64,000 bases of DNA from Rhizobacter sp. SG703 (GTDB lineage Bacteria; Pseudomonadota; Gammaproteobacteria; Burkholderiales; Burkholderiaceae_C), in NCBI RefSeq assembly GCF_012275445.1, contig NZ_JAAZQK010000001.1, forward strand, positions 62,001 through 126,000. Direction: 5' to 3'. Position numbers and translations under genes: made by a program. Under the pieces are notes generated by a model, which saw only the letters and a program-made list of their open reading frames with translations, made no database searches and was not told where the DNA came from. Positions 4,038-48,024 of the stretch are shown here, one piece after another (within the stretch, counting starts at the first letter, position 1; each line of letters begins with the position of its first letter).

Positions 4038-5441
4038 TCACCAGCGTTCGTCGGACGGGTAGGGTTGGTGCCTCTCGTCCGGCACGGTGGGCCTCGACCC
4101 GCTCGGCACGCCTCCCCAACCGTCCGCCTGCGGCGCGCGCGCGTACGGTGGCACGCTCTCGCCCATCGCGGCGCGCCGGCGGCGTCCTTGCGGCGGGATC
4201 GAGAAATCCGTCGGCGCCGGTCCTGCGCCGATGCCGGAGGGCTGGTGCGCCCGGCTGGACTGCATGTCGCGTTCGAACTGGCCGGTGTTGGTGCGGCGCG
4301 CCTCGTAGGCATCGCCGGCCTGCGCCAGGTAGTTGAGTGCGTTCTGGCTCATCGCCGCGGCGGGCTTGTCGGCGTGGCCGCTCGAGTAGGCCTCGGGATG
4401 CCACTGCATGCCCATGACCGGCGCGCCGGAGCGCGATTCGAAGGCTTCGGCCGCGTACTGCGGCGCACCCGGCGGCGCCTGCATGAACGGGTTCGCGTGC
4501 GTCGTGTCGCGCGCCGAGACCTGCAAGTTCGCCAGCTTCGCGACGAGAGCCTCGTCCTGCGGATCACGGGGCACCAGGCCTCCTGCGTCCTCGCGCGCAG
4601 CAGCCCAGTGCACGCTGTTCACGTCGTAGGGGATTCGGGTCGTCTCCTGGTTGTTTGCCCAGCGCGGTCCGGGCGCCGGGCCGCCGTCGACGTCCATCGG
4701 ATCCTGGCGTTGCCAGGCCGATTGGCTGTGCAGCATCGTCTTGGGTTCCAGGTCGATGCCGTGGGGTTCGAAGTTGTTGCTGATGTTGCCGTCCTTCTTG
4801 ATGAACGGCATGGAGCGCGCCTGGTGCGTGCCGGAGTTCAACTGCTGCGTGGTGCCGCCGTAGCTTTCGAGCACGCTCCAGGAGCCGCCGCACAGGCCGG
4901 CCACCGGTCGTCCGGTCAGTTGCGCCTGCTTGAGCAGCGCCTCCTCATGCTCGCGGCGTTGCTGGTGGCGCTCTGCAGCGCTGCCCTTCGGCGTATGTGC
5001 CGCGTGGCGCGGACTCTCGCTTTCCAGGCCGTAGTTGCCGCCGGCGACCACCAGCAGGCCCCTGCCTCCGCCGGTGGTGGTGGTGTGCGACCTCGGCAGG
5101 TCCCCGCTGTAGTTTTTCTTGCCCGGCTTCGTCGGATCGGTGGAGCTGATGGTCGGCTCCATACCGCCCGGATGCGAGGCGATGCTCTCGCGTCCGGTGG
5201 TCTGCTGCATCGTGTAGTGGTCCCAGAACGCGCCGGTGCCATGGCCCGAGTCGCGGTACGCGATGGTCACCGGCATGCGCGGCGGGCGCCCGAGAGCGCT
5301 CAGTTCGGTGGCGACGCGCGCGCGCGAGGTGGGTGGCGGCGACCCGCCTTCGCTGTCGCTGCTGTCGCGGCGTTCCTGTGCGTGGCGCTTGACGCCTCCC
5401 GAGCGGTTGCTGTGGTGCGACCCGACGCGATGGTCTGGCAT
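4038..5441 (-). CDS. class I glutamine amidotransferase-like protein, candidate type III effector
   Basis: 467 residues. The middle carries the class I amidotransferase/C26 peptidase-like signature: AGGNYG (133-138), the nucleophile elbow GLCGG with Cys184, VNSVHWAA (274-281) in the place of the VNSxHHQ motif, and the catalytic His-Glu motif GMQWHPE (His348, Glu350). Relatives (PuuD and similar gamma-glutamyl hydrolases) are about 250 residues. Here about 120 N-terminal and 100 C-terminal residues are added, rich in Ser, Pro, Arg and His and probably disordered. That is unusual for a housekeeping enzyme and typical of secreted effectors. The start has a good Shine-Dalgarno (AAAGGA). A perfect PIP box (TTCGC-N15-TTCGC) lies 75 bases upstream with a fitting -10. 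No amidotransferase partner is adjacent. Enzyme fold is likely; substrate unknown; the effector role is inference. Confidence 0.75.
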   Translation of the reverse strand: MPDHRVGSHHSNRSGGVKRHAQERRDSSDSEGGSPPPTSRARVATELSALGRPPRMPVTIAYRDSGHGTGAFWDHYTMQQTTGRESIASHPGGMEPTISSTDPTKPGKKNYSGDLPRSHTTTTGGGRGLLVVAGGNYGLESESPRHAAHTPKGSAAERHQQRREHEEALLKQAQLTGRPVAGLCGGSWSVLESYGGTTQQLNSGTHQARSMPFIKKDGNISNNFEPHGIDLEPKTMLHSQSAWQRQDPMDVDGGPAPGPRWANNQETTRIPYDVNSVHWAAAREDAGGLVPRDPQDEALVAKLANLQVSARDTTHANPFMQAPPGAPQYAAEAFESRSGAPVMGMQWHPEAYSSGHADKPAAAMSQNALNYLAQAGDAYEARRTNTGQFERDMQSSRAHQPSGIGAGPAPTDFSIPPQGRRRRAAMGESVPPYARAPQADGWGGVPSGSRPTVPDERHQPYPSDERW

Positions 5442-37049: not shown

Positions 37050-38201
37050 ATGAGCCATGACATCGCGTCTCAGAGCAGGCGCCTGCTGCTGTTGTCCGGT
37101 CTGGGCGGATCGGCGCTGGCGGCCGGGGCGGCCCGGGCCGAGCCGGCACCGGCCTTCGGCGACCGCCATCCGCCGAGCCTGGAGACCCGGCTCACGCGCC
37201 ACTACGGCGTGCGCCATCCCTTCGTCGGCGCCGGCATGGGCTTCGTCGCGCTGCCGTCGCTGGTGGCGGCGGTGTCGAACGCCGGCGGCATCGGCGTGCT
37301 GGGCAACGGCATCGAGCCGCCGCCCGGCACGCAGGCGCTGATCCAGTCGATCAAGGCCACGACGGCGCGGCCCTTCGGCGTGGATTTCATCTTCGACGAC
37401 TCGGCGTTCGGACCGCTGGTGACGCAGGCGCACATCGATGTCTGCATCGCCGAGCGGGTGCGCCTGGTGGTGTTCCACATGAACGTGCCGCCGCGGGCCT
37501 GGATCGACCAGCTGCATGCGGCGGGTGCGCGGGTGTGGATGCAGGTGGCCTCGGTGGCGCAGGCGCTGGAGGCGGCAGCCGCCGGCATGGATGCGGTGAT
37601 CGCCCAGGGCTCGCAGGCCGGCGGACACAACAAGAGCACCACGCGCACGCTCCAGCTGCTGCCGCAGGTGGTCCGGGCGGTGCGGCCGTTGATGGTGCTG
37701 GCCTCGGGCGGCATTGCCGATGGACAGGGCGTGGTCGACGCGTTGGCCCATGGCGCCGATGGCGTCTGGGTGGGCACGCGCCTGGTCGCGTCGAGCGAGG
37801 CGCATGCGCATCCGGAGTACCAGCGCCGCATCGTCGAAGCCCGCGGGCATGCCACCGTCACGACCACGCTGTTCGGGCCGGAGTACCCCGGGCGGCCGTA
37901 CCGCGTGCTGCGCAACCGGGTCGTCGACGAATGGGCCGGCAGGGAAGGGCAGGTGCCGAACCCGCCACCGCCGCCCGCCGTCATCGGCAGCACGCTGCTG
38001 TTCCCGTTGACGCTGAAGCAGAACTACAGCATGCCCAAGTTCAGCGCGATCGTGCCGACACCGGAGACGACCGGCGACTTCGAGGAGATGGGGTTGCCGG
38101 CCGGCTCGGAGAGCGTGAAGTTCATCAAGCGGGTGCAGCCGGCGGGCGAGATCGTGCGGGAAATGATGGAAGAAGCGCGAGCGCTCATCCGCTCGTCTTG
38201 A
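37050..38201 (+). CDS. nitronate monooxygenase family protein with signal peptide
   Basis: 383 residues, FMN-dependent nitronate monooxygenase / 2-nitropropane dioxygenase fold. GAGMGFVALPSLVAAVSNAGGIGVLG, AQGSQAGGH (185-193) and LASGGIADGQGVVDALAHGADGVWVGTRL are the flavin- and substrate-site motifs. Unusually the N-terminus (SQSRRLLLLSGLGGSALAAGAARA, about 8-30) looks like a Tat-type export signal, so the enzyme may act in the periplasm. Shine-Dalgarno GGGAG supports the start. No neighbour explains the substrate. About 40 extra C-terminal residues continue the barrel's last helix. Confidence 0.85.
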   Translation: MSHDIASQSRRLLLLSGLGGSALAAGAARAEPAPAFGDRHPPSLETRLTRHYGVRHPFVGAGMGFVALPSLVAAVSNAGGIGVLGNGIEPPPGTQALIQSIKATTARPFGVDFIFDDSAFGPLVTQAHIDVCIAERVRLVVFHMNVPPRAWIDQLHAAGARVWMQVASVAQALEAAAAGMDAVIAQGSQAGGHNKSTTRTLQLLPQVVRAVRPLMVLASGGIADGQGVVDALAHGADGVWVGTRLVASSEAHAHPEYQRRIVEARGHATVTTTLFGPEYPGRPYRVLRNRVVDEWAGREGQVPNPPPPPAVIGSTLLFPLTLKQNYSMPKFSAIVPTPETTGDFEEMGLPAGSESVKFIKRVQPAGEIVREMMEEARALIRSS

Positions 38202-38300
38202 CGGCAGCGGCAATCCGGCAGGACGACGACCTGCCCGACGGCAACGCCTGTGCCGAGGCCTGTGCGTCGGTTGCGCTCGCTGGTCTGCTGCGTCGATCAA

Positions 38301-38353
38301 GACATCCCCAACATGAAGGACAAGCCGCCCGGACGGCTTGAGCTAGGGATGTC
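38301..38353. terminator. nested stem-loop, possible bidirectional terminator
   Basis: GACATCCC (38301-38308) pairs with GGGATGTC (38346-38353). Inside, CAAGCCG (38321-38327) pairs with CGGCTTG (38334-38340) across a six-base loop. It lies 100 bases after the nitronate monooxygenase stop. There is no T tract. Confidence 0.4.
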
Positions 38354-38469
38354 CGTGCGCGAAGATCTTCCGAAGAATCGGTTCCCGACCACCACGAGAC
38401 TTCAGGGAGGACACATGACTGTCCTGGTCTTGGCAAACGCTGGCGTGCCGCTGCGGCCGCCGTGCCTCC

Positions 38470-39831
<1,362 letters not shown>

Positions 39832-39868
39832 ACGGGCGGGCCGGGGCAGGACATTCGCGCCCGTCGGC

Positions 39869-39886
39869 GCGGACAAATTTGTCCGC
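39869..39886. promoter_or_regulatory. upstream activator site, perfect palindrome
   Basis: GCGGACAAATTTGTCCGC is a perfect 18-bp palindrome centred about 134 bases before the -24 element. Position and symmetry fit an enhancer-binding-protein site. Confidence 0.7.
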
Positions 39887-39941
39887 CCCGTTCCCGGCAG
39901 CGCAGAAGGCGCCATCGCCCGGATCGCGCCGCCATCCGCCA

Positions 39942-39955
39942 GGACAAATTCATCC
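39942..39955. promoter_or_regulatory. upstream activator site, imperfect copy
   Basis: GGACAAATTCATCC matches the core of the perfect palindrome (GGACAAATTTGTCC) except at two positions. It is centred 71 bases further on, about 63 bases before the -24 element. Paired sites of this spacing are typical of sigma-54 activators. Confidence 0.65.
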
Positions 39956-40010
39956 CGGTGGAGCGACCCGATCGATGCGCTTCACCTGGGAGAAGCGCCT
40001 CGATGCGGCA

Positions 40011-40025
40011 TGGCACCGCTCTTGC
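40011..40025 (+). promoter_or_regulatory. sigma-54 (-24/-12) promoter of the eCIS operon
   Basis: TGGCAC, 5 bases, TTGC: a full match to the -24/-12 consensus (TGGCACG-N4-TTGC has the same spacing; only the G after TGGCAC differs). The predicted start of transcription is near 40037, 19 bases before the first ATG of the operon. Confidence 0.75.
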
Positions 40026-40055
40026 GAAGAAGCACCCCAACAGGCCGCAGCCGCC

Positions 40056-40340
40056 ATGAACGCCAACGATCCGGTCGAGGAGATTGTCCGAGCCTTGTCG
40101 CGGTACCTGCGCCTGAACCCGCTCGCGTCCGACACGCTGGAAGGCATCGCGCAATGGTGGCTCACCGTCGACGATTTCTCCGAAGCCCGGTTGCAGCAGG
40201 CGCTGCAGCAGCTGGTGGATGCCGGCGTCGTCGCCGCGGTGCCGGCGGCCGACGGCCAGGTGCGCTATCGGCGTTCCGCGCTGAACGCGAGCGTCGACGC
40301 GCAGCTTGACCGATTCATTGCCGGACCGCGTATTCCCTAG
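40056..40340 (+). CDS. small winged-helix-like protein, first gene of the eCIS operon
   Basis: 94 residues, no signal peptide or membrane segment. The helices VEEIVRALSRYLRLNP, DTLEGIAQWWL and EARLQQALQQLVDAGVV followed by the hairpin VAAVPAADGQVRYRR fit a small winged-helix fold. Similar short proteins stand at the head of several eCIS loci; their role is unknown, perhaps regulatory or structural. The start at 40056 is forced by the sigma-54 promoter, whose transcript begins near 40037; the in-frame ATG at 39975 would lie upstream of it. It precedes the sheath gene by 8 bases. Confidence 0.65.
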   Translation: MNANDPVEEIVRALSRYLRLNPLASDTLEGIAQWWLTVDDFSEARLQQALQQLVDAGVVAAVPAADGQVRYRRSALNASVDAQLDRFIAGPRIP

Positions 40341-40348
40341 GAGGCCCC

Positions 40349-42307
40349 ATGGTGCAAGTGACTTATCCAGGCGTCTACATCCAGGAAGTGTCGAGCGGGG
40401 TGCACACGATCACCAGCGTGGGCACCTCCATCACCGCCTTCATCGACTTCTTCCGCGAGGGGCCGACCGACCAGGCGGTCGAGATCTTCGGCATGGCCGA
40501 TTTCCAGCGCATCTTCGGTGGGCTGGACGACCGCAGCGACGCGAGCTACGCGATCGCGCAGTACTTCCTGAACGGCGGCAGCTCGGCCTACGTGATCCGG
40601 GTCGCCAGCGGCGCGGTCGCCGCGAGCGCGGTGCTGCACCAGATGCCGACGCCGAACGAAGCGCTGGTCGTGCGCGCCGCGAGCGCGGGCGCCTGGGGCA
40701 ACAACCTGCGGGTGCAGGTCGACCATGCGACCACGTCGCCCGACACCCGCTTCAACCTGTCGATCACGCGCTACGACGGAACCACCGCCACCGCCAAGCC
40801 GCTGGCCACCGAGCGCTACCTGAACCTGACGATGGACCTGGCGGACCCGCGCTATGCGGTCAAGGTGATCAACGACAGCTCCCGGCTGGTCATCGTCGCG
40901 CCGGGCGCCGGCGTGCTCGCCACCGAGCGGCCGTCGGCCAACGGCACCTCCGGCGGCGCGATCACCGTGGCGAACCTCGGGCTCCTGAACGGCCTGTCGG
41001 GCAAGAAGTTCAAGGTCGCGCTCGGTGCCTTGCCGGCGCGTGACGCGATCCTCGCCGACTGGGCCGCCGAGGTGCCGGCCAAGACCGTCGACACGCTGGT
41101 CAAGCTGCGCGGCTACATCGAGCAGGCGATCCGAAGCTCCGGTGCCGGCCTCGACGTGCCGCTGCCGCTGCAAGGCGCCGTGGTCGAAGTCGTCGGTAGC
41201 AATCGCCTGCGCGTGCTGACCGGCGCGGCTGGCTACTCGCCGATGGAGCGCGTGACCCTCAGCAACTTCGGCGGCGGCGACACCACGGCGGCCACCCTCG
41301 GCTTCGACGCGGCGGCCACGGTCAATGTGCAGGAGTACCCGCTGGGCTCCGGCGCGTCGGCGAGTGCCGGCGCGCTGGTCATCGGCCCGCCCGGCACCGA
41401 CGGCGGCTTGATCGGCGGCAACGACATCCTCGGCAACCCGGCGCTGTTCACCGGCCTGTACGCGCTCGACCGCGTCGACCTCTTCAACATCCTGTGCATC
41501 CCGCACGCGGTCGCGCTGGACGACACGGCGACCAGCAAGGTCTACAGCGACGCGCTTGCCTTCTGCGAGCTGAAGCGGGCGTTCCTGCTGATCGACGTGC
41601 CGGCCACGATCGACACCGTGCAGGAGGCCAAGGACTGGCTCGACGCCCACGCGACGCTGCGCCACCGCAACGCCGCGCTGTACTTCCCGCGCACGCAGGT
41701 TCCCGACCCGGTGAACGACTTCCGGCTGCGCTCGGTGGCCGCCAGCGGCACGATGGCCGGCATCTTCGCGCGCACCGACAACCAGCGCGGCGTCTGGAAG
41801 GCGCCGGCCGGCGTCGAGGCGGTGCTCAACGGCGTGGTGCAGCTCGACATCCGCCTCACCGATGCCGAGAACGGCGTGCTGAACCCGCTGGCCATCAACT
41901 GCCTGCGCACCTTCCCGGTCTATGGCGGCGTGGCCTGGGGCGCGCGCACGCTGGTCGGCGCCGACCAGCTGGCGTCGGAATGGAAATACGTGCCGATCCG
42001 GCGGCTCGCGCTGATGCTGGAAGAGTCGCTGTTCCGCGGCACCAAGTGGGTGGTGTTCGAGCCGAACGACGAACCGCTGTGGGCCAAGGTGCGGCTCAAC
42101 GTCGGCGCCTACATGAACTCGCTGTTCCGCCAGGGCGCCTTCCAGGGCGCGACGCCGAAGGAGGCCTTCTTCGTCAAGTGCGACGCCGAGACCACCACCG
42201 AGGACGACCGCAACAAGGGCATCGTGAACATCCAGGTCGGCTTCGCACCGCTGAAGCCCGCTGAGTTCGTCGTCATCAGCATCCAGCAGATCGCTGGCGA
42301 TCTCTAA
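40349..42307 (+). CDS. contractile sheath protein
   Basis: 652 residues, phage-tail sheath family (T4 gp18, Afp2-4). The N-terminus VTYPGVYIQEVSSGVHTITSVGTSITAFIDFFREGPTDQ is the classic sheath start, where strands link subunits into the mesh. The C-terminal region (LNPLAINCLRTFPVYGGVAWGARTL, EWKYVPIRRLALMLEESLFRGTKWVVFEPND, LWAKVRLNVGAYMNSLFRQGAFQG) is the highly conserved sheath core. Contraction of this sheath drives the inner tube through a target membrane. Afp and PVC clusters have three sheath genes and T6SS has a two-gene sheath; only one sheath gene is in this window. AGGAGG Shine-Dalgarno. Confidence 0.94.
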   Translation: MVQVTYPGVYIQEVSSGVHTITSVGTSITAFIDFFREGPTDQAVEIFGMADFQRIFGGLDDRSDASYAIAQYFLNGGSSAYVIRVASGAVAASAVLHQMPTPNEALVVRAASAGAWGNNLRVQVDHATTSPDTRFNLSITRYDGTTATAKPLATERYLNLTMDLADPRYAVKVINDSSRLVIVAPGAGVLATERPSANGTSGGAITVANLGLLNGLSGKKFKVALGALPARDAILADWAAEVPAKTVDTLVKLRGYIEQAIRSSGAGLDVPLPLQGAVVEVVGSNRLRVLTGAAGYSPMERVTLSNFGGGDTTAATLGFDAAATVNVQEYPLGSGASASAGALVIGPPGTDGGLIGGNDILGNPALFTGLYALDRVDLFNILCIPHAVALDDTATSKVYSDALAFCELKRAFLLIDVPATIDTVQEAKDWLDAHATLRHRNAALYFPRTQVPDPVNDFRLRSVAASGTMAGIFARTDNQRGVWKAPAGVEAVLNGVVQLDIRLTDAENGVLNPLAINCLRTFPVYGGVAWGARTLVGADQLASEWKYVPIRRLALMLEESLFRGTKWVVFEPNDEPLWAKVRLNVGAYMNSLFRQGAFQGATPKEAFFVKCDAETTTEDDRNKGIVNIQVGFAPLKPAEFVVISIQQIAGDL

Positions 42308-47773: not shown

Positions 47774-48024
47774 GCCTCGAGATCGGGCGGCTGTCGATCA
47801 CGCTGCACGGTGGCTCGGGCACGCTCGGCGACGGCCTGTCCGACGCGATCGAAGGCGCGCTGCGGCAGGCACTCGCGCGGCACGCCGGCCTGCACGGGCT
47901 GGCCGATGCGGTGCAGCTGGACCTCGGCGTGCTGCAGGCGCCGGCCGGTGCCGCGACGGACGCCCACCGGATCGCCGACCTGATCGCCGCGCGGCTGCTC
48001 GCGCTCGGCGGGGAGGGCCGCTGA
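47770..48024 (+). CDS. small eCIS protein of unknown function
   Basis: 84 residues. LEIGRLSITLHGGSGTLGDGLSDAIEGALRQALARH followed by a helical part. It resembles short proteins found after AAA+ genes in related clusters; no function can be given. ATGA overlap with the ATPase stop; the next gene starts on the base after its stop. Confidence 0.6.
   Translation: MSLEIGRLSITLHGGSGTLGDGLSDAIEGALRQALARHAGLHGLADAVQLDLGVLQAPAGAATDAHRIADLIAARLLALGGEGR

What the first reader, a model, noticed from the sequence alone, without database searches (positions are those of the whole stretch)
40011..40056. An injection-particle operon under a consensus sigma-54 promoter
TGGCAC-N5-TTGC lies 19-30 bases before the first gene of a 20-gene eCIS operon, and a sigma-54 activator gene stands directly upstream on the same strand. 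Known from the sequence: the promoter match, the activator's AAA+ domain and the gene order. Inference: the particle is made only when this activator fires, which would tie it to a defined signal. I know of few eCIS loci with a promoter this clear.
Basis: partly seen in the sequence, partly recalled or inferred. Interest (0 to 1): 0.8.

Follow-up and report, generated by a model that had tools for sequence, protein, structure and literature searches.

The report
Conserved sigma-54 switch for injection particles
A bacterial operon for a phage-tail-like injection particle sits behind what looks like a complete sigma-54 switch (activator gene, two activator-binding sites, -24/-12 promoter and a small regulator-like protein) that recurs in other bacteria, which makes the open question of how such particles are turned on directly testable.

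Summary
TGGCACCGCTCTTGC (40011-40025, +) is the only exact -24/-12 match in the window, 30 nt before the first gene of an eCIS operon and downstream of a co-directional sigma-54 activator (EBP). Conservation makes it far stronger than one motif. The first gene (g1, 94 aa, no clear family, predicted winged helix), the EBP and the promoter recur together: 36 of 36 testable g1-bearing eCIS loci have the promoter with at most 1 mismatch within 130 nt (34 within 100), against 0.7% of random 100-nt windows. The g1-linked EBPs form one clade, and 55 of 55 lack the second glycine of GAFTGA (GAFTHA here, mostly GAFTDA). g1-EBP pairs also stand by T6SS, nitrate-reductase and protease genes, so g1 is probably a regulator, not a particle part. 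The 'defined signal' is not supported: the receiver-like domain has lost most phosphorylation residues, and 38 of 55 relatives have no room for one. Most likely: dedicated sigma-54/EBP control with g1 as partner; the role of g1 is inference. Five paper searches found no description of sigma-54 control of an eCIS.

The parts
38470..39831 (+). Sigma-54 activator (bacterial enhancer-binding protein, 453 aa), member of the g1-linked EBP clade
   Evidence: PF00158 E=2.3e-61, AAA lid, weak HTH_8; 55 g1-linked EBPs are one side of a branch, SH-aLRT 100, quick tree
38470..38823 (+). Degenerate receiver-like N-terminal domain of the activator
   Evidence: AlphaFold2 pLDDT 86.9, alternating strands and helices; no Pfam match at E<=1; acidic pair, Thr/Ser and Lys absent, Asp53 kept (positions recalled)
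38887..39387 (+). AAA+ domain with Walker A GETGSGK and sigma-54-contact loop GAFTHA instead of GAFTGA
39733..39801 (+). Fis-type HTH with recognition segment KNRRAFFELIRKH
39849..39862 (+). Possible third, weaker activator site GGACATTCGCGCCC (1 of 8 core bases off)
   Evidence: not found as such in G008
39871..39884 (+). Enhancer dyad UAS1 GGACAAATTTGTCC
39942..39955 (+). Enhancer dyad UAS2 GGACAAATTCATCC, 71 bp from UAS1
40011..40025 (+). -24/-12 sigma-54 promoter TGGCACCGCTCTTGC
40037..40037 (+). Predicted transcription start (about 12 nt after the -12 GC)
   Evidence: inference from the recalled geometry of sigma-54 promoters
40056..40340 (+). g1: 94-aa first gene, family without a clear match in the libraries searched (consensus HPxAxDTLEGIxxWWL), predicted winged-helix-like fold
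40349..42307 (+). Contractile sheath protein
   Evidence: PF04984, PF17482
42329..42838 (+). Tube protein
   Evidence: PF06841
44485..45648 (+). Pvc16-like protein
   Evidence: PF14065
45656..47773 (+). AAA ATPase (likeness to Pvc15 recalled, not tested)
   Evidence: PF00004
51126..51512 (+). gp25-like baseplate protein
   Evidence: PF04965
51509..54085 (+). Baseplate J-like protein
   Evidence: PF04865, TIGR02243

Best explanation
The eCIS operon is transcribed by sigma-54 RNA polymerase from TGGCAC-N5-TTGC at 40011-40025, and opening requires the adjacent EBP (38470-39831). The EBP binds two GGAC-N6-GTCC dyads at 39871-39884 and 39942-39955 through its C-terminal helix, assembles on them and remodels the polymerase by DNA looping. 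The first product, g1, is a small winged-helix protein that belongs to the switch rather than to the particle and most likely feeds back on the EBP or its DNA. Shown by computation: the promoter, the dyads, their conservation and their tie to the EBP helix; the g1-EBP linkage; one EBP clade with an altered GAFTGA loop. Inferred: binding, looping, sigma-54 dependence, and the role of g1. The input is unlikely to be plain receiver phosphorylation. The confidence given is for sigma-54/EBP control; for g1 as regulator it is about 0.55.
For: Box and both dyads identical in same-genus G008. First set: 19 of 19 g1 loci with the box within 100 nt, 11 exact, against 0.7% of random windows; 2 of 77 sheath loci without EBP or g1 have one within 400 nt. 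Second set: 12 of 14, or 11 of 13 without L204, which repeats L179. All 65 distinct g1 loci: eCIS 34 of 36 testable within 100 nt and 36 of 36 within 130, T6SS 4 of 15, other 3 of 8, short contigs 5 of 5 (100 nt). An EBP lies in the fetched stretch of 55 of 65, 48 of these 55 with its end within 800 nt of g1, 51 on the same strand and 4 opposite. Of the ten loci without one, seven genomes were searched: each has one clearly best EBP outside the fetched stretch (three on the same contig 27-31 kb away), 6 of 7 with the altered loop. Dyads: the six EBPs with an [ND]RRA(F/L)FEL helix all have at least two GGAC-N6-GTCC sites, the other 24 loci none; in later loci L294, the one new EBP of that kind, has two and the other 29 loci none, and GGTC-N6-GACC occurs in 8 of 10 [KT]ERR loci, 2 of 15 with other helices and 1 of 4 without an EBP. 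Only this one of the genome's 25 exact -24/-12 sites has two or more dyads upstream. g1-linked EBPs are one clade (SH-aLRT 100); 55 of 55 lack the second Gly, which the genome's 14 other strong EBPs keep.
Against: No transcript data. An exact -24/-12 match in 64 kb is not rare (19 of 100 shuffles). The window's loop is GAFTHA; in NorR only D, N, Q, S, C and M worked in place of that glycine, so His (and Thr, in L092 and L119) did not (PMC2941729, passages), although GAFTHA is among variants said to stay competent in D. vulgaris (PMC4641369, passages). One in-trans EBP (G630, L312) keeps the glycine. The dyads were found by reading the first set; in the later set the GGAC total is 2 against 3.4 expected by shuffling, so the support there is that both fall in the one predicted locus; 11 of the 24 loci of the first set without GGAC sites have no GGTC site either, and the split into [KT]ERR and other helices was made on reading. 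The window and G008 lack the IHF-like site of many relatives. g1 has no significant match (best: Pfam AlkZ-like E=0.0012 in 1 of 9 members, PDB E=0.064), and its fold could not be searched. In 11 of 15 T6SS loci g1 has no box in front. Box spelling was relaxed to TGGCAY after the first relatives were seen (strict TGGCAC: 17 of 19 within 1 mismatch, counted), and the 130-nt limit is post hoc.
Confidence: 0.85

Rival explanations
1. The -24/-12 match and palindromes are chance or relic; the operon is driven by an ordinary sigma-70 or other promoter and the EBP serves another target.
For: 25 exact -24/-12 matches exist in the genome, 0.23 per 64 kb are expected by chance, and the loop is GAFTHA, a form that did not work in NorR (PMC2941729, passages).
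Against: 34 of 36 (100 nt) or 36 of 36 (130 nt) testable g1-bearing eCIS loci keep the box, dyad type follows the EBP helix, and no sigma-70-like site was found in 38200-40400.
Confidence: 0.05
2. The EBP is a conventional two-component response regulator, phosphorylated by a kinase elsewhere, so the particle answers one defined signal.
For: The N-terminal domain is receiver-like with an Asp at the end of strand 3 (Asp53); the N-terminus of one clade member, L294, has a weak receiver match (PF00072, E=0.03, under the cut-off).
Against: The acidic pair after strand 1, the Thr/Ser of strand 4 and the Lys of strand 5 are absent in the window; no Pfam match for the window domain and none over the cut-off in 9 clade N-termini scanned, while that of g1-less L172 scores E=3e-14; 38 of 55 clade members lack room for the domain.
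Confidence: 0.1
3. g1 is a structural or assembly part of the particle rather than a regulator.
For: It is the first gene, 8 nt before the sheath gene here, and is present in 37 eCIS loci.
Against: It also stands by T6SS genes in 15 loci, in 14 of them on the same strand, and with an EBP before nitrate reductase genes (L278), papain-like protease with patatin or peptidoglycan-binding genes (L274, L269) and weak PEP-CTERM matches (L206); 77 sheath loci examined have neither g1 nor EBP.
Confidence: 0.15
4. The EBP with a changed GAFTGA loop is constitutively active, so the switch is set only by EBP abundance; g1 is an unrelated passenger.
For: In NorR the G266D and G266N changes at this position bypass cis-repression (PMC2941729, passages); Asp is the residue in 48 of 55 clade members.
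Against: g1-EBP linkage across unrelated operons argues that g1 matters; the window has His, not Asp.
Confidence: 0.25

Closest known systems
VasH/RpoN control of T6SS clusters (V. cholerae, A. hydrophila, V. fischeri; PMC10482370, passages)
   Same: A contractile injection system under sigma-54 with an EBP; VasH of V. [quoted passage not shown]
   Different: Here an extracellular-type system; an EBP clade with an altered GAFTGA loop; a g1 gene first in the operon. Sequence kinship to VasH was not tested.
eCIS regulators named by Geller et al. 2021 (GerE/LuxR, BTAD, RfaH; PMC8213781, passages)
   Same: Regulatory genes next to eCIS loci.
   Different: A different mechanism; the word 'sigma' occurs 0 times in that paper's main text.
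Predicted D. vulgaris sigma-54 regulons (PMC4641369, passages)
   Same: EBPs with GAFTDA, GAYTDA and GAFTHA loops and EBPs without N-terminal domains, paired with operons by conserved promoters and binding sites.
   Different: No eCIS among the targets in the passages seen; 'tail' occurs 0 times in the main text.
PspF-PspA and HrpRS-HrpV (EBPs controlled in trans; PspA-PspF in a passage, HrpV recalled)
   Same: An EBP without a sensory domain controlled by a partner protein: the model proposed for g1.
   Different: Kinship of g1 to PspA or HrpV was not tested; no g1-EBP interaction is shown.

Membership tests
Sigma-54 (-24/-12) promoter | GG and GC elements in TGGCAC-N5-TTGC spacing | tested here: met
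   exact match
Sigma-54 (-24/-12) promoter | conserved position before related operons | tested here: met
Sigma-54 (-24/-12) promoter | sigma-54 present in the genome | tested here: met
   three PF04552 matches
Sigma-54 (-24/-12) promoter | transcription depends on sigma-54 and an activator | not testable with these tools
   needs mutants or in vitro transcription
Bacterial enhancer-binding protein | sigma-54-type AAA+ domain with Walker A | tested here: met
   PF00158 E=2.3e-61; GETGSGK
Bacterial enhancer-binding protein | GAFTGA sigma-54-contact loop | tested here: inconclusive
   exact letters not met: GAFTHA; that variant is listed as competent in PMC4641369, but His was not among working substitutions in NorR
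Bacterial enhancer-binding protein | C-terminal Fis-type HTH with dyad enhancers upstream of the promoter | tested here: met
   HTH_8 match just under its cut-off; alignment; dyads
Two-component response regulator | receiver with acidic pair, phospho-acceptor Asp, Thr/Ser and Lys (positions recalled) | tested here: not met
   only Asp53 kept; no PF00072 match
eCIS | sheath, tube, baseplate gp25 and J, Pvc16-like and AAA ATPase genes in one cluster | tested here: met
eCIS | release as an extracellular particle; no phage head genes | not tested
   head genes were not sought
VasH-type T6SS activator | EBP kinship to VasH | not tested
   no VasH sequence was brought into the tree

The most novel reading that the evidence does not exclude
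The EBP, g1 and the enhancer/promoter form a portable sigma-54 control cassette in which the usual sensory domain has decayed or been lost, the sigma-54-contact loop has switched to a non-glycine form, and control has passed to a winged-helix partner (g1) made as the first product of the operon it controls. The cassette probably arose with eCIS and was then recruited to T6SS (two changes between the labels on the EBP tree) and other operons.
Probability: 0.4. Interest if true: 0.85.

Novelty: new variant of a known kind. Interest (0 to 1): 0.74.

Why it matters
A 2023 review of tailocins and other eCISs says that for loci lacking conserved regulatory genes it remains unclear how they are regulated and what elicits them (PMC10598620, passages). 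This gives a concrete hypothesis (which sigma factor, which activator, which sites, which partner) that can be tested by plain gene removal and that extends to 37 g1-bearing eCIS loci, in Pseudomonadota and, in one named case, Thermodesulfobacteriota. It also points to an EBP clade with an unusual sigma-54-contact loop and to an unnamed protein family shared between eCIS and T6SS loci.

Tried and rejected
Rejected: that the promoter match alone proves the point (19 of 100 shuffled windows contain one). Rejected: further targets of this EBP in the genome. The two other near-palindromes lie at C1:131857, before a gene with ricin-type lectin and pectate-lyase domains, and at C4:538583; neither has a box with at most 2 mismatches on the same strand nearby; none of the other 24 exact -24/-12 sites has two GGAC dyads (three have one). 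Rejected: an IHF site in the window (4 mismatches), although 13 of 48 loci have one with at most 1 mismatch (1.2 expected by mononucleotide shuffling), 12 of the 13 at -27 to -30 (consensus recalled). A first search for palindrome pairs found nothing, because UAS2 is imperfect and the threshold too strict.

Led nowhere: Pfam, PHROG and PDB sequence searches with g1 gave only weak matches (9 of the 32 members used); plasmid search with one g1 found none; paper searches for contractile injection or eCIS with sigma-54, sigma54, RpoN or enhancer binding protein gave no paper that describes it (listings, of which one search showed 25 of 117; passages of one hit).

Rows left out of counts: L098 (contig ends upstream of the sheath hit) was not used in the g1 counts; five loci that re-fetch places already counted (L204, L272, L303, L304, L305) were dropped; L270 has no upstream DNA. 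L286 and L299 were also dropped as near-copies but kept. In some searches the highest-scoring EBP of a locus was taken (L284 has two). T6SS or eCIS was assigned from any hit in the fetched stretch; in L297 the T6SS gene is on the other strand.

Full report
The observation. The window has TGGCACCGCTCTTGC at 40011-40025 on the + strand, 30 nt before the ATG (40056) of a 94-aa gene called g1 here, which is followed after 8 nt by the sheath gene at 40349. It is the only exact match in the window; 0.23 are expected by chance, and the genome holds 25 against 10 for the reversed pattern. The gene upstream (38470-39831, +) is a sigma-54 activator with an AAA+ domain and a Fis-type HTH. The operon downstream carries eCIS markers. 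The match alone would be modest evidence; the rest of the work asked whether evolution has kept it.

Conservation of the promoter. In G008, a same-genus relative with a 91% identical activator, the box and two upstream palindromes are identical while the DNA between them has diverged; the leader with its start codon agrees in 29 of 33 nt. Among the window plus 99 sheath loci (19 of the 20 unnamed same-family stretches, 80 named ones), 19 carry a g1 homologue, and all 19 have TGGCAY-N5-TTGC with at most 1 mismatch (GG and GC fixed) within 100 nt of g1, 11 of them exact. Random 100-nt windows of the same loci show this in 0.7% of cases, 4 of 661 other ORF upstreams do, and 2 of 77 sheath loci lacking both EBP and g1 have one within 400 nt. 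The Y at position 6 was admitted after TGGCAT was seen in relatives; with strict TGGCAC, 17 of 19 stay within 1 mismatch (counted). A second set found by g1 alone in class- and phylum-wide samples (13 of 369 and 4 of 398 genomes, the window's own included) gave 12 of 14, or 11 of 13 without L204, a repeat of L179. An order-wide sample (35 of 399 genomes) was added. The tally over 65 distinct g1 loci: eCIS 37, box in 34 of 36 testable within 100 nt and 36 of 36 within 130; T6SS 15, box in 4; other 8, box in 3 (4 within 130); short contigs 5, box in 5. The T6SS group, with the same g1 and mostly the same kind of EBP, is a useful control: the box is not a by-product of how g1 loci were chosen.

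The activator-binding sites. Two dyads, GGACAAATTTGTCC (39871-39884) and GGACAAATTCATCC (39942-39955), lie 71 bp apart between activator and promoter. The genome has only two other places within two mismatches of the first. Reading the upstream DNA of relatives showed a second dyad type, GGTC-N6-GACC. The type follows the recognition helix of the neighbouring EBP: all six EBPs with [ND]RRA(F/L)FEL have at least two GGAC sites (14 in all; 2.9 expected over the 30 loci) and the other 24 loci none, while 23 GGTC sites were seen over the 30 loci against 3.0 expected, one of them in the six; 13 of the other 24 loci have a GGTC site and 11 have neither type. In the later loci the one new EBP of the first kind (L294) has two GGAC sites and the other 29 loci none (2 in all, 3.4 expected by shuffling); GGTC sites (17, 3.2 expected) are in 8 of 10 loci with a [KT]ERR helix, 2 of 15 with other helices, a split made on reading that table, and 1 of 4 without an EBP. 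This is the best evidence that the dyads are bound by the adjacent EBP. L103 and L104, with a third helix type, have neither dyad type. In part of the loci an IHF-like site (WATCAANNNNTTR, consensus recalled) lies upstream of the box: 13 of 48 with at most 1 mismatch against 1.2 expected, 12 of the 13 at -27 to -30; the window and G008 do not have it.

The activator. A tree of 72 EBPs puts all 55 g1-linked ones on one side of a fully supported branch, apart from 14 other EBPs of the window's genome and three EBPs next to g1-less eCIS loci (a quick tree, with no outside EBP families included). Fifty-five of 55 lack the second glycine of the GAFTGA loop (48 Asp, 4 His, 2 Thr, 1 Ser; the window has His), while the three g1-less ones keep it, as do the 14 other strong PF00158 matches of the genome (six weak matches were not looked at). 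In NorR, Asp or Asn at this place makes the protein constitutive, Gln, Ser, Cys and Met partly so, and the rest did not work (PMC2941729, passages); GAFTHA and GAFTDA are listed among variants that keep activity in D. vulgaris (PMC4641369, passages). The window's N-terminal domain is predicted receiver-like but has no Pfam match and lacks the acidic pair, Thr/Ser and Lys (positions recalled); one clade N-terminus of nine scanned, L294, has a weak receiver match (E=0.03).

g1. The family (32 members aligned) has no significant match in Pfam, PHROGs or PDB sequences (nine members searched; best AlkZ-like E=0.0012 in one). An EBP of this clade is in the fetched stretch in 55 of 65 loci, its end within 800 nt of g1 in 48 of the 55, on the same strand in 51 and opposite in 4. 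Of the ten loci without one, seven genomes were searched and each has one clearly best EBP outside the stretch, three of them 27-31 kb away on the same contig, 6 of 7 with GA(F/Y)TDA (G630 has GAYTGA). g1 stands by eCIS genes, T6SS genes, nitrate reductase genes (L278), papain-like protease with patatin or peptidoglycan-binding genes (L274, L269) and weak PEP-CTERM matches (L206). A protein that keeps its activator but changes the genes behind it is more likely a regulator than a particle part; as the first product of the operon it is placed to feed back. That role is inference.

Comparison with what is known. Sigma-54/VasH control of T6SS is established (PMC10482370, passages). For eCIS, Geller et al. 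name LuxR-type (GerE), BTAD and RfaH regulators, with no occurrence of 'sigma' in the main text (PMC8213781, passages), and a 2023 review calls the regulation of loci without conserved regulators unclear (PMC10598620, passages). Five paper searches found no description of sigma-54 control of an eCIS (listings). The parts are therefore known kinds (EBP, -24/-12 promoter), while the combination with g1, the altered-loop clade and its recurrence before eCIS look new within what could be searched. L108 and L172 show EBPs outside the clade next to other eCIS loci that also have exact -24/-12 boxes, so sigma-54 control of eCIS may have arisen more than once; L114, a third such locus, has no box within 600 nt of its sheath gene.

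Noticed in passing
genome G000 C5:324254, C11:187683, C1:520966: Three sigma-54 (PF04552) matches in the window's genome; the last two lie 3-5 kb from other EBP genes. Which one reads the eCIS promoter is open.
   Followed up: no
L214, L217, L218 and 12 further loci: g1 by T6SS genes, an EBP in 13 of 15; sheath proteins with VipA and VipB domains in one frame in L214, L217 and L218; 11 of 15 have no -24/-12 box before g1.
   Followed up: partly
L278, g1 at 4489-4720 and narG-like gene from 4923 (coordinates on the g1 strand): g1, an EBP of the clade and a box (1 mismatch) directly before nitrate reductase alpha, beta and delta genes.
   Followed up: no
L269 and L274, downstream of g1: g1, EBP and exact box before papain-like protease genes with patatin (L274) or peptidoglycan-binding (L269) neighbours; possibly a third kind of target.
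   Followed up: no
window 47774-48024: A 251-nt gap inside an otherwise tightly packed operon; a second promoter is possible.
   Followed up: no
L003 1501-1514 (genome C1:131857, about 5.9 kb past the window end): GGACAAATCTGTCG, near-copy of the enhancer dyad, 32 nt before a gene with ricin-type lectin and pectate-lyase domains; no -24/-12 box within 2 mismatches on that strand nearby.
   Followed up: partly
L103 and L104 upstream regions: EBPs with a third helix type (MERAAFSKMVKKC), divergent from the operon; a different palindrome (GACACAGCTGTGTC in L103) may be their site.
   Followed up: no
L108 and L172: eCIS loci with EBPs outside the clade (GSFTGA, GAFTGA) and exact -24/-12 boxes, suggesting separate adoption of sigma-54 control.
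   Followed up: partly
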